From: Cetobacterium somerae
Lineage (GTDB): Bacteria > Fusobacteriota > Fusobacteriia > Fusobacteriales > Fusobacteriaceae
Length of the DNA stretch: 64,000 nt
Assembly (NCBI RefSeq): GCF_022430525.1
Contig: NZ_CP092519.1
Coordinates: 372,001-436,000 of the forward strand
Reading direction: 5' to 3'
A program made the position numbers and the translations under genes. The notes beneath the pieces were generated by a model that saw nothing but the letters and a program-made list of their open reading frames with translations, had not been told where the DNA came from and did not search any database. The stretch's first letter is position 1. Each line of letters begins with the position of its first letter. Shown here piece after piece: positions 40,345-56,521 of the stretch.

Positions 40345-40364
40345 AAATAAAAAACAATAAAAAA

Positions 40365-40440
40365 CATACTCATATATTTTTGGAAATATGGTCCAATAGT
40401 TTCTACGTCTTTACCGTAAATGAAGACACTATGGGTAGAA
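40365..40440 (+). ncRNA. purine riboswitch aptamer, guanine type
   Basis: The core matches the purine class. P1 TACTCATA pairs with TATGGGTA. J2/3 is GTTTCTA, the P3 stem-loop is GTCTT-ACCGTAAA-AAGAC, and J3/1 ends ACTATG. The discriminating base in J3/1 is C, as in guanine/hypoxanthine aptamers. The P1 3' strand (40431-40440) can also pair with 40462-40471, excluding the terminator. Ligand binding should therefore switch the permease off. Confidence 0.93.
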
Positions 40441-40452
40441 CTGACTGCATTT

Positions 40453-41868: not shown

Positions 41869-42309
41869 TTAGTTATATCTTGCTTGGATTGTAACATTTC
41901 CGCTGTATACTCCAGTTTGCTGATTATTTGGGATGTCTAAAGTGAATTTAATTGGTTTGGCAGAAATAAACTCATCTTGACGAAGAACTATAGTTTCTTC
42001 TGTGTGATCAATGTTTGCCCAAACAGTAGCTCCACTTATATTTTTTAGAGCTAATTTACCATCATTTGTTAATCCAGAAATCGTAATTTTAGCTTGATTA
42101 CGCCCTTGTCCTTTTATAGAAAATTTTCCAATAGCAATATTTCCAGAAGTTCCTTTAGCAATTTTTCCAAATTCAGCATGTTGATCAATTTTAACAGTTA
42201 AAGTTTCCATGATAGTAGCACTAACGTTCATATTAGCAGAATCAGGATTGCTACTTCCAAAAGCTGCTACAGCAGTAGTTAAAGATAAAAGTGTTAATAA
42301 TTTTTTCAT
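41869..42309 (-). CDS. secreted DUF4402-like protein 3
   Basis: A 146-residue protein with a signal peptide (MKKLLTLLSLTTAVAAFG) and a beta-sandwich domain of the DUF4402 pattern: ATIMETLTVKIDQHAEFGKIAKG, then a GxFxIxGxG strand, closing with TGVYSGNVTIQARYN. Such domains resemble fimbrial or spore-coat-U subunits. It is the last of three paralogues on one transcript led by a c-di-GMP riboswitch. Likely a surface fibre or adhesin subunit; no usher or chaperone gene is adjacent. Confidence 0.75.
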   Translation of the reverse strand: MKKLLTLLSLTTAVAAFGSSNPDSANMNVSATIMETLTVKIDQHAEFGKIAKGTSGNIAIGKFSIKGQGRNQAKITISGLTNDGKLALKNISGATVWANIDHTEETIVLRQDEFISAKPIKFTLDIPNNQQTGVYSGNVTIQARYN

Positions 42310-42348
42310 AATTTATTTCCTCCGATAATTTTTAAGATTATAAATGGG

Positions 42349-42804
42349 CTATTTAAACTTAACTTTCATAGTTAAAGTTCCAGAATAGTTTCCAATTGGT
42401 GCATTCTTAGGAACTGTAAGTTCAGTATCAAAAGAATATTTATATTCTCCTTTTTCATTTAGTTTTGTATTTTTACCATCATCATTTGTATTTTTTAAAG
42501 AAACATTTAAAATATTTGAATCACTTTTTTCATGAAAAAGAGAGATGTTTTTCTTGAAACCATTCAAGTTTTTATCGTTAAGAGAGATATCAACGTTTTG
42601 TCCAGGTTCACCGTATATTATAAAAATATGACCATTAGTTGAATGAGTAGAGCCTTGTATAACTTTTCCATAATTAATATCACCATTATGGATGACTTTT
42701 AGAGGCTTTATAACAGTAGCATTGATATTCATACTTTCTTCTGAAATATTAGAAGAAAATATATTACTAAAAGTTAATAAAAATAAACTTAAAATTAATG
42801 ACAT
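42349..42804 (-). CDS. secreted DUF4402-like protein 2
   Basis: A 151-residue paralogue. The N-terminal hydrophobic stretch MSLILSLFLLTFSNIFSS acts as a signal peptide. The domain shows MNINATVIKPLKVIHNGDINYGKVIQG and ends IGNYSGTLTMKVKFK. It carries a charged insertion (NDDGKNTKLNEKGEYKY) absent from the other two. It is separated from gene 1 by a perfect hairpin (42823-42847) and preceded by a GGAGGAG site. Most diverged of the three. Confidence 0.75.
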   Translation of the reverse strand: MSLILSLFLLTFSNIFSSNISEESMNINATVIKPLKVIHNGDINYGKVIQGSTHSTNGHIFIIYGEPGQNVDISLNDKNLNGFKKNISLFHEKSDSNILNVSLKNTNDDGKNTKLNEKGEYKYSFDTELTVPKNAPIGNYSGTLTMKVKFK

Positions 42805-42822
42805 AACTCCTCCTTATATGAA

Positions 42823-42847
42823 AACAACTGGGAATATCCCAGTTGTT
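42823..42847 (-). terminator. intra-operon hairpin between DUF4402-like genes 1 and 2
   Basis: AACAACTGGGA/TCCCAGTTGTT, 11 perfect pairs with a three-base loop, followed on the minus strand by only a short T-stretch (TTTTC). It may attenuate the two downstream genes or stabilise the first cistron. Confidence 0.55.
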
Positions 42848-42852
42848 AATAA

Positions 42853-43272
42853 TTATTGATATTGAACTCTAGCAGTTATAGAACCTGTATATATACCAGT
42901 TACAGTTTCAGTAGTAGGATTTATTGTTCCAACCATGTCAAAACTTGCTTTTCCAGCATTATCTAGATTGTGAGGAATAACAAAATTATTAAAAGAAATA
43001 TCTAAAGTATCTTCACTTCCATTTCTTTTTAAAGATGATAAGTTAGATAAAGTGACTTCAAATTTTTCTCCTGGTTCTCCATCAATAGTGTATTGTCCAG
43101 TAGCTGTTGCCTTAGTTCCTTGAATTACAGTTCCAAATTCCATATTTTTAGCTATAATAGTTAGTGGTTTAATCACAGTAGCTTTAATGTTCATAGTAGC
43201 CTGATCATTTGAAGTTACACCAAAAGCTGTCATAGTAGTAGTTAAAGATAAAAGTATTAATAATTTTTTCAT
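42853..43272 (-). CDS. secreted DUF4402-like protein 1
   Basis: A 139-residue protein, first of the operon, with a signal peptide (MKKLLILLSLTTTMTAFG) nearly identical to gene 3's. The domain reads MNIKATVIKPLTIIAKNMEFGTVIQG, TATGQYTIDGEPGEKFEVTL and ends VTGIYTGSITARVQYQ. The start follows GGGAGGG. It lies directly below a c-di-GMP-I riboswitch/terminator, so its level should respond to cyclic di-GMP. Confidence 0.78.
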   Translation of the reverse strand: MKKLLILLSLTTTMTAFGVTSNDQATMNIKATVIKPLTIIAKNMEFGTVIQGTKATATGQYTIDGEPGEKFEVTLSNLSSLKRNGSEDTLDISFNNFVIPHNLDNAGKASFDMVGTINPTTETVTGIYTGSITARVQYQ

Positions 43273-43316
43273 AATTTGTTCCCTCCCGTAATTTTATAAA
43301 GTTTATAAAATACAAA

Positions 43317-43366
43317 AGCCAGTTGCACTTATATTTTGGCTAAACCAAAATGTAACTGCAACTGGC
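43317..43366 (-). terminator. riboswitch expression-platform terminator
   Basis: On the minus strand AGCCAGTTGCAGTTACATTT and the matching downstream arm form a stem of about 20 pairs with a mismatch, followed by TTTTGTATTTT. Its 5' arm is the 3' end of the c-di-GMP aptamer, so aptamer folding and termination compete. Confidence 0.8.
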
Positions 43367-43422
43367 TGTCATTTTAAAGACCCTATAGTTTTGCGTCATA
43401 GGATTTCTCCTACTTTGCCTAT
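43355..43422 (-). ncRNA. c-di-GMP-I (GEMM) riboswitch
   Basis: On the minus strand the conserved elements occur in order: GGCAAA, a hairpin GTAGGA-GAAA-TCCTAT with GAAA tetraloop, GACGCAAAACTATAGGGTCT (the GACGCAAA...GGG core) and ATGACAGCCAGTTGC (tetraloop-receptor side and closing strand). It heads the transcript of three secreted DUF4402-like proteins. The promoter is immediately upstream. Confidence 0.88.
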
Positions 43423-43437
43423 TTATATTATATAATA

Positions 43438-43466
43438 ATGATATATTAAAATTTAAAAAATGTCAA
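43438..43466 (-). promoter_or_regulatory. promoter of the riboswitch-DUF4402 operon (TTGACA-N17-TATCAT)
   Basis: Minus-strand -35 at 43461-43466 and -10 at 43438-43443. The aptamer begins about 18 bases downstream. Confidence 0.7.
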
Positions 43467-56295: not shown

Positions 56296-56321
56296 TTAAA
56301 GTTTCGAAAATTTAATATTTT

Positions 56322-56521
56322 AGGTAGAGGTTGCGAATGACAAGAGTAACTCAATAGAGCTGGACAGAGCGCTGAAGTTGAGTGAAAGGGGAATTCGCCG
56401 AAATAAAGGTTAAGTCAAAAATCTTTGTTGGGCATGTGAAAAAAATTCACATGACTGTCATCAGATAGAATCTGGTGTTGTGCTATCCAAAATTTGTGAT
56501 ATATTTTGCAGATTAGCTACC
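56322..56521 (+). ncRNA. lysine riboswitch (L box)
   Basis: The 5' core GGTAGAGGTTGCGAATGACA with AAGAGTAAC, then GTGAAAGGGGAATTCGCCGA, GTTGGGCATG and ACTGTCATC follow the lysine-aptamer order. P1 is GGTAG (5') with CTACC (3', 56517-56521). That P1 3' strand is also the start of the terminator stem, so lysine binding would disfavour termination. Confidence 0.93.

What the first reader, a model, noticed from the sequence alone, without database searches (positions are those of the whole stretch)
41869..43466. c-di-GMP-I riboswitch controlling three secreted DUF4402-like proteins
Consensus promoter, GEMM aptamer and a long terminator head an operon of three paralogous secreted beta-sandwich proteins that look like fibre subunits, with no usher nearby. 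The terminator 5' arm is the aptamer's 3' end, so c-di-GMP binding likely prevents termination (an on-switch). This could be an undescribed c-di-GMP-induced adhesin or matrix system.
Basis: partly seen in the sequence, partly recalled or inferred. Interest (0 to 1): 0.7.

Follow-up and report, generated by a model that had tools for sequence, protein, structure and literature searches.

The report
c-di-GMP switch for scattered pilus subunits
In a Cetobacterium genome an RNA switch that senses the 'settle-down' signal c-di-GMP appears to turn on three building blocks of an adhesive pilus, whose export machinery lies elsewhere in the genome under sister copies of the same RNA switch.

Summary
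A full c-di-GMP-I aptamer (62.1 bits, cut-off 35) with an 11/12 promoter and a -30 kcal/mol terminator heads three secreted DUF4402 genes in a Cetobacterium genome. The terminator's 5' arm uses 13 aptamer bases, including the C that pairs with the ligand, so an ON switch is best supported. The genome has eight such riboswitches, all built this way. They precede two 'orphan' DUF4402 loci, two chaperone-usher-like operons (one opening with an HD-GYP phosphodiesterase), a RadD-like autotransporter, a cyclase, an EAL phosphodiesterase and a MarR-like regulator. Predicted structures of two window proteins match chaperone-usher pilins best, and all three keep a donor-strand-like N-terminus and the pilin C-terminal signature. 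The missing usher exists 195 kb away; in relatives, riboswitch-DUF4402 cassettes, usher and PapD-like chaperones form one locus. So this is the unlinked pilin cassette of a c-di-GMP-induced chaperone-usher pilus. Each element is a known kind. New, as far as the held literature shows, are riboswitch-controlled chaperone-usher pili, a usher too divergent for Pfam/NCBIfam, and a c-di-GMP output without PilZ. Ligand response, export and filament formation are inferred, not shown.

The parts
43438..43466 (-). sigma-70 type promoter, TTGACA-17 nt-TATCAT
   Evidence: 11 of 12 consensus positions, best in the region; a consensus match only, not proof of function
43354..43429 (-). c-di-GMP-I (GEMM-I) riboswitch aptamer
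   Evidence: RF01051, 62.1 bits, gathering 35; contact residues kept
43317..43367 (-). intrinsic terminator whose 5' arm (from 43367) is the aptamer's 3' end
   Evidence: -30.0 kcal/mol; 13 stem bases inside the Rfam match, including the C92 equivalent; falls to -7.3 if the core plus that C are occupied
42853..43272 (-). gene 1, 139 aa secreted DUF4402 pilin-like subunit; RBS GGGAGGG just upstream
   Evidence: Pfam DUF4402 27.6 bits; AF2 pLDDT 76.8; Foldseek and VIA-align top matches chaperone-usher pilins FimF and CsuA/B
42823..42847 (-). hairpin between genes 1 and 2 (11 pairs, then TTTTC), possible attenuator or mRNA stabiliser making gene 1 the most abundant subunit
   Evidence: (listed on + strand), fold -15.6 kcal/mol on the - strand; role inferred
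42349..42804 (-). gene 2, 151 aa secreted DUF4402 pilin-like subunit
   Evidence: Pfam 27.7 bits; AF2 pLDDT 70.0; Foldseek top nine all chaperone-usher subunits (FimA, FimF, CfaB, FimG, DraD)
41869..42309 (-). gene 3, 146 aa secreted DUF4402 pilin-like subunit
   Evidence: Pfam 25.4 bits; pilin C-terminal signature; 76% identical orthologue with dN/dS 0.42 in another Cetobacterium genome
41834..41863 (.). operon-end terminator hairpin, shared with the convergent permease gene
   Evidence: 13-pair stem, -15.3 kcal/mol on the - strand

Best explanation
The window holds the unlinked pilin cassette of a c-di-GMP-induced chaperone-usher pilus. SHOWN BY COMPUTATION: a c-di-GMP-I aptamer whose 3' end is the 5' arm of the terminator; three secreted subunits with a pilin-like fold (two modelled), an N-terminal donor-strand-like extension and the pilin C-terminal signature; eight riboswitches of the same design in the genome, two of them on operons with a usher-like protein plus PapD-like chaperones; and, in a related genus, the same riboswitch-DUF4402 cassettes inside the usher/chaperone locus. 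INFERRED: when c-di-GMP is low, RNA polymerase leaves the leader as the terminator forms and captures the ligand-pairing C. When c-di-GMP is high, the ligand-locked aptamer keeps the terminator 5' arm and the operon is read. The subunits enter the periplasm, are held by a PapD-like chaperone from the C1:609-614 kb operon (or the second system), and are threaded through its usher as a fibre by donor-strand exchange. The 279-aa two-domain DUF4402 protein of that operon would be the tip. The regulon also switches on its own cyclase and phosphodiesterases, which would give feedback and a way to stop.
For: Aptamer. Terminator overlap in 8 of 8 own riboswitches and 2 of 2 in L077/L078; the same design, with the terminator capturing the ligand-pairing C, is the experimentally studied ON switch pilM (PMC9262584). 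Eight riboswitches and their targets. Pilin fold; C-terminal Gly-14 and penultimate Tyr/Phe in all three. Complete usher operon in the own genome, riboswitch - HD-GYP - SBP_bac_5 - two-domain DUF4402 - usher - MORN - PapD_N chaperone; that chaperone scores 27.4 against 23 for PapD_N. A profile of 26 usher-like proteins against six K-12 ushers by hhalign: collinear over the full length, score 46.8, P=2.4e-4; 12 column-shuffled controls scored 13.9-22.1. Relatives: one locus holds riboswitch-DUF4402 cassettes, usher and chaperones in three genomes of another genus (L126-L128). 46 of 64 DUF4402 hits in the phylum have a same-strand riboswitch within 10 kb upstream (44 within 6 kb), and all 25 DUF4402 genomes also carry the usher-like gene. 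8 of 8 Cetobacterium genomes with the U1 usher operon also have an unlinked riboswitch-DUF4402 gene. c-di-GMP is probably made: 11 GGDEF and 5 EAL domains, no PilZ.
Against: No experiment. Foldseek E-values are 2e-3 to 4e-2, TM about 0.4-0.5 and Z below 8, so the fold match is moderate though the top ranks are mostly pilins. The usher-like proteins hit no usher model in Pfam or NCBIfam, the profile comparison is only suggestive, and EcpC gives no signal (P=0.17). One genome (G011, 93% complete) has unlinked DUF4402 genes but no close U1 usher, though it has more distant ones. Which of the two ushers, or which chaperone, serves these subunits is unknown. At equilibrium the -30 kcal/mol terminator would probably beat the aptamer, so the switch must act during transcription (as PMC9262584 describes for pilM).
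Confidence: 0.72

Rival explanations
1. Same riboswitch, but the three proteins are stand-alone secreted or outer-membrane-attached matrix proteins that never pass a usher; the pilin-like fold is an old resemblance.
For: No usher or chaperone in the window operon; one genome (G011) has such genes without a close U1 usher.
Against: All 25 DUF4402 genomes have the usher-like gene; in a related genus the cassettes alternate with PapD-like chaperone genes at the usher locus; donor-strand-like N-terminus and pilin C-terminal signature are kept.
Confidence: 0.15
2. OFF switch: c-di-GMP binding favours termination, as in the Cd1 riboswitch of Clostridioides difficile, so the subunits are made when c-di-GMP is low.
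For: Cd1 is a GEMM-I aptamer with opposite output (PMC9262584); sequence alone cannot prove the sign.
Against: No separate antiterminator was seen.
Confidence: 0.08
3. The aptamer senses another cyclic dinucleotide (3',3'-cGAMP).
For: One sister riboswitch in the same genome, before the RadD-like gene, has A at the position-20 equivalent, the change studied as G20A in cGAMP binding (PMC6274999).
Against: The window aptamer keeps G at that position, with A47 and C92; the genome has 11 GGDEF and 5 EAL domains.
Confidence: 0.05

Closest known systems
Geobacter metallireducens pilM GEMM-I riboswitch (ON)
   Same: Transcriptional ON switch in which the terminator takes up the ligand-pairing C of the aptamer, so aptamer and terminator exclude each other; sits before a pilus-related operon (PMC9262584)
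   Different: Senses cGAMP; the genes downstream are not chaperone-usher subunits; different phylum
Bacillus cereus group Bc2 riboswitch / CbpA (Cap)
   Same: c-di-GMP-I riboswitch that switches on an adhesin gene when c-di-GMP rises (PMC7423583)
   Different: A single cell-wall-anchored collagen-binding protein of a Gram-positive, no pilus assembly machinery
Archaic and alternative chaperone-usher pili (Csu, CFA/I, ECP)
   Same: Subunit fold (CsuA/B Z 6.9, CfaB 6.0, EcpA 5.3), N-terminal donor-strand pattern, PapD-like chaperone, two-domain tip-like protein
   Different: Usher not recognised by Pfam or NCBIfam models; pilin genes unlinked from the usher in this genus; control by riboswitches; different phylum
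Clostridioides difficile c-di-GMP riboswitch regulon
   Same: Several c-di-GMP riboswitches in one genome, on surface proteins and pili (PMC11477304)
   Different: Uses classes I and II, on flagella, type IV pili and other surface proteins; here eight class I switches, all ON by architecture, on chaperone-usher and autotransporter genes

Membership tests
c-di-GMP-I (GEMM-I) riboswitch, RF01051 | Matches the covariance model above the gathering score over the full model | tested here: met
   62.1 bits against 35, positions 1-87
c-di-GMP-I (GEMM-I) riboswitch, RF01051 | Ligand-contact nucleotides G20, A47, C92 equivalents and GAAA tetraloop present | tested here: met
   anchored by sequence motifs; positions discussed in PMC9049102
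c-di-GMP-I (GEMM-I) riboswitch, RF01051 | Binds c-di-GMP and changes expression | not testable with these tools
   needs in-line probing or a transcription assay
DUF4402 (PF14352) | Score above Pfam gathering threshold | tested here: met
   27.6, 27.7, 25.4 bits against 25.2; narrow margins
Chaperone-usher pilin | Incomplete Ig-like beta-sandwich of pilin type | tested here: met
   Two of three proteins modelled; top Foldseek matches FimF, FimA, CfaB, PapG pilin domain, CsuA/B with probability about 1.0 but E 2e-3 to 4e-2; VIA-align Z up to 6.9. Moderate strength
Chaperone-usher pilin | N-terminal extension of alternating hydrophobic residues (donor strand) outside the fold | tested here: met
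   MNIKATVI / MNINATVI / MNVSATIM, conserved in the alignment; this stretch carries no strand in either model
Chaperone-usher pilin | C-terminal signature: Gly 14 from the end and penultimate aromatic residue | tested here: met
   All three window proteins; 18 of 32 relatives exactly, most others shifted by a short tail; the rule itself is from memory
Chaperone-usher pilin | Gene cluster with PapD-like chaperone and usher | tested here: inconclusive
   Not in the window; found in trans in the same genome and in cis in relatives
Chaperone-usher pilin | Polymerises by donor-strand exchange through a usher | not testable with these tools
   needs biochemistry or microscopy
Outer-membrane usher (curated Pfam/NCBIfam usher models) | Hit to a curated usher model | tested here: not met
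   none in 24 members of two alignments; NCBIfam none for the two own proteins. I call them usher-like only: full-length hhalign to K-12 ushers P=2.4e-4, gene order, size
PapD-like periplasmic chaperone | PapD_N above gathering score | tested here: met
   own chaperone 27.4 against 23; 9 of 12 relatives match PapD_N at E 0.1 or better

The most novel reading that the evidence does not exclude
Fusobacteriaceae have a distinct, undescribed class of chaperone-usher pili. Pilin cassettes, each with its own c-di-GMP ON riboswitch, are scattered in the genome and feed a shared divergent usher in trans, so the set of subunits can be exchanged by moving cassettes. Riboswitches, not PilZ proteins, are the main c-di-GMP receptors of these bacteria.
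Probability: 0.4. Interest if true: 0.72.

Novelty: new variant of a known kind. Interest (0 to 1): 0.6.

Why it matters
It gives a likely function and a regulator to DUF4402, a family that no paper in the held full-text library names. It links c-di-GMP to surface attachment in Fusobacteriaceae by an RNA route: among 98 Fusobacteriota genomes, none of the 36 with this riboswitch above cut-off has PilZ, and none of the 8 with PilZ has the riboswitch above cut-off. Cetobacterium is, to my knowledge, a dominant fish-gut symbiont, so a testable colonisation switch would be useful. The eight co-regulated leaders make a compact test of how one second messenger sets pilus, autotransporter adhesin and its own turnover together.

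Tried and rejected
Direct recognition of the usher-like proteins by Pfam, NCBIfam or solved-structure profiles failed. hhalign against single K-12 ushers and EcpC was weak; only the grouped K-12 profile gave a signal above shuffles. A profile of the DUF4402 set against PDB sequences gave CsuA/B first but not significantly (E 0.3); hhalign to EcpA likewise. The chaperone profile found no chaperone among PDB sequences, although PapD_N was found by Pfam. A genome-contig scan with gene 1 alone found nothing; with five relatives it found one Cetobacterium MAG. OFF-switch and cGAMP readings were considered and ranked low.

Full report
What is in the window. On the minus strand a promoter (TTGACA-17-TATCAT) starts a leader with a full c-di-GMP-I aptamer at 43429-43354 (62.1 bits, gathering score 35). 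It is followed by a 51-nt terminator at 43367-43317 and three genes for secreted proteins of 139, 151 and 146 aa. All three pass the DUF4402 gathering score by small margins. They evolve under constraint, but less than housekeeping genes (dN/dS 0.57, 0.34 and 0.42, against 0.02-0.04 for two neighbours), which suits surface-exposed subunits. The genus is Cetobacterium by its syntenic relative.

How the switch works. The terminator's 5' arm begins inside the aptamer: 8 pairs use the aptamer core and 5 its 3' tail, including the C that pairs with the ligand in Vc2 numbering (C92). If core and that C are occupied, the terminator falls from -30.0 to -7.3 kcal/mol. The two folds therefore exclude each other. 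All eight riboswitches of the genome have terminators that take up this C, though in some (cyclase, EAL, MarR, second usher operon) only the tail is shared and not the core, and the rest of the stem stays fairly stable. The same arrangement is described for the ON switch pilM, where the terminator captures C75, the residue pairing with the ligand (PMC9262584). The sign of the switch is thus inferred from anatomy and precedent, not measured. Contact positions are kept in the window aptamer.

The regulon. Eight riboswitches precede: the window operon; a single DUF4402 gene on contig 4 (L013); an operon HD-GYP - SBP_bac_5 - 279-aa two-domain DUF4402 - usher-like 871 aa - MORN - PapD-like chaperone (L010, L131); an operon chaperone-like - subunit - chaperone-like - usher-like 888 aa - two small secreted proteins (L012); a 2311-aa autotransporter that matches NCBIfam RadD only in part (667.8 bits against a 3500-bit cut-off; L014); a GGDEF protein and, just after it, an EAL protein with its own riboswitch (L009); and a 96-aa MarR-like regulator (L011). 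The genome has 11 GGDEF and 5 EAL domains and no PilZ. So the signal would turn on attachment organs, a regulator and both arms of c-di-GMP turnover.

What the proteins are. AlphaFold2 models of gene 1 (pLDDT 76.8) and gene 2 (70.0), from only six sequences, are beta-sandwiches with a strandless N-terminal extension. Foldseek's best PDB matches are FimF, a type I pilin, PapG pilin domain and CsuA/B for gene 1, and FimA, FimF, CfaB, FimG and DraD for gene 2. VIA-align puts CsuA/B on top with Z 6.9 (3.9 A over 104 residues), tied with an unrelated PapD-like domain, then mostly pilins. Z below 8 alone would not be decisive; the agreement of two models and the sequence signatures add weight. The signatures are the alternating N-terminus (MNIKATVI) and, at the C-terminus, Gly-14 with a penultimate Tyr or Phe (the C-terminal rule is from memory). 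The alternating donor-strand pattern is described for Csu pilins in PMC4654587.

Where the usher is. It is not in the window, but two usher-like genes lie in the same genome, about 195 kb and 66 kb from the window operon, each in a riboswitch-led operon. They hit no curated usher model. A profile of 26 usher-like proteins aligns over its whole length with six E. coli K-12 ushers (score 46.8, P 2.4e-4), while column-shuffled controls reach 22.1 at most. The chaperone of the first operon passes PapD_N (27.4 against 23).

Why the window operon belongs to it. In three genomes of a related genus the locus reads riboswitch - DUF4402 - HD-GYP - SBP - two-domain protein - usher - 301-303-aa protein - chaperone, followed by DUF4402 cassettes, most with a chaperone gene and a riboswitch of their own (L126-L128). 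In Cetobacterium the usher operon keeps HD-GYP, SBP, tip-like protein, usher, MORN and chaperone (L129, L130, L131) but has no small DUF4402 gene; these sit elsewhere behind their own riboswitches. Across 98 Fusobacteriota genomes, 44 of 64 DUF4402 hits have a same-strand riboswitch within 6 kb upstream, and all 25 genomes with DUF4402 have the usher-like gene, counted in 40 genomes. All 8 Cetobacterium genomes with the first usher operon also have an unlinked riboswitch-DUF4402 gene; of the other 4, one does (9/495 = 0.018, ignoring shared descent).

Known or new. The riboswitch class, its ON form and its use on adhesins are known (PMC9262584, PMC7423583). Chaperone-usher pili are known. I found no paper in the held library joining chaperone-usher pili and a c-di-GMP riboswitch (judged by titles and abstracts), none on c-di-GMP in Cetobacterium beyond passing mention, and none naming DUF4402; most subscription papers are not covered. 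I file it as a new variant of a known kind.

A wider pattern. Riboswitch and PilZ do not co-occur in the phylum (36 and 8 of 98 genomes, overlap 0 over cut-off; 0.021 by chance, ignoring descent). RNA may have taken over c-di-GMP reading in these lineages. Other receptor families were not tested.

Noticed in passing
L014:4237-4312: The riboswitch before the RadD-like autotransporter has A instead of G at the position-20 equivalent (TAGCAAA), the change associated with cGAMP binding; it may read a different dinucleotide from the other seven. A GGDEF protein making cGAMP was not looked for.
   Followed up: partly
G000 and 97 other Fusobacteriota genomes: c-di-GMP-I riboswitches (36 genomes over cut-off) and PilZ domains (8 genomes) never occur together in the phylum.
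   Followed up: partly
L009:4959-8595: A cyclase gene and an EAL phosphodiesterase gene follow each other, each with its own c-di-GMP-I riboswitch; the second aptamer starts at the end of the cyclase gene.
   Followed up: partly
L011:4581-5065: A 96-aa MarR-like regulator behind a c-di-GMP-I riboswitch, also found in at least seven other Cetobacterium genomes; it may pass the signal on to genes without a riboswitch.
   Followed up: partly
G054:C3:967476-967719, G059:C1:553405-553646, G061:C428:1259-1500: Tandem c-di-GMP-I aptamers about 90 nt apart in another Fusobacteriaceae genus (g14); in the same genus some aptamers run straight into a G-rich RBS-like stretch with no terminator seen, suggesting translational control (L019, L020, L026).
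   Followed up: no
L012:2065-4188: An HD-GYP protein with a periplasmic SBP_bac_3 domain is encoded divergently from the second chaperone-usher-like operon, mirroring the HD-GYP inside the first.
   Followed up: no
window 40350-40451 and 56317-56493: Purine riboswitch (86.9 bits) before a permease gene and lysine riboswitch (115.3 bits); ordinary.
   Followed up: no
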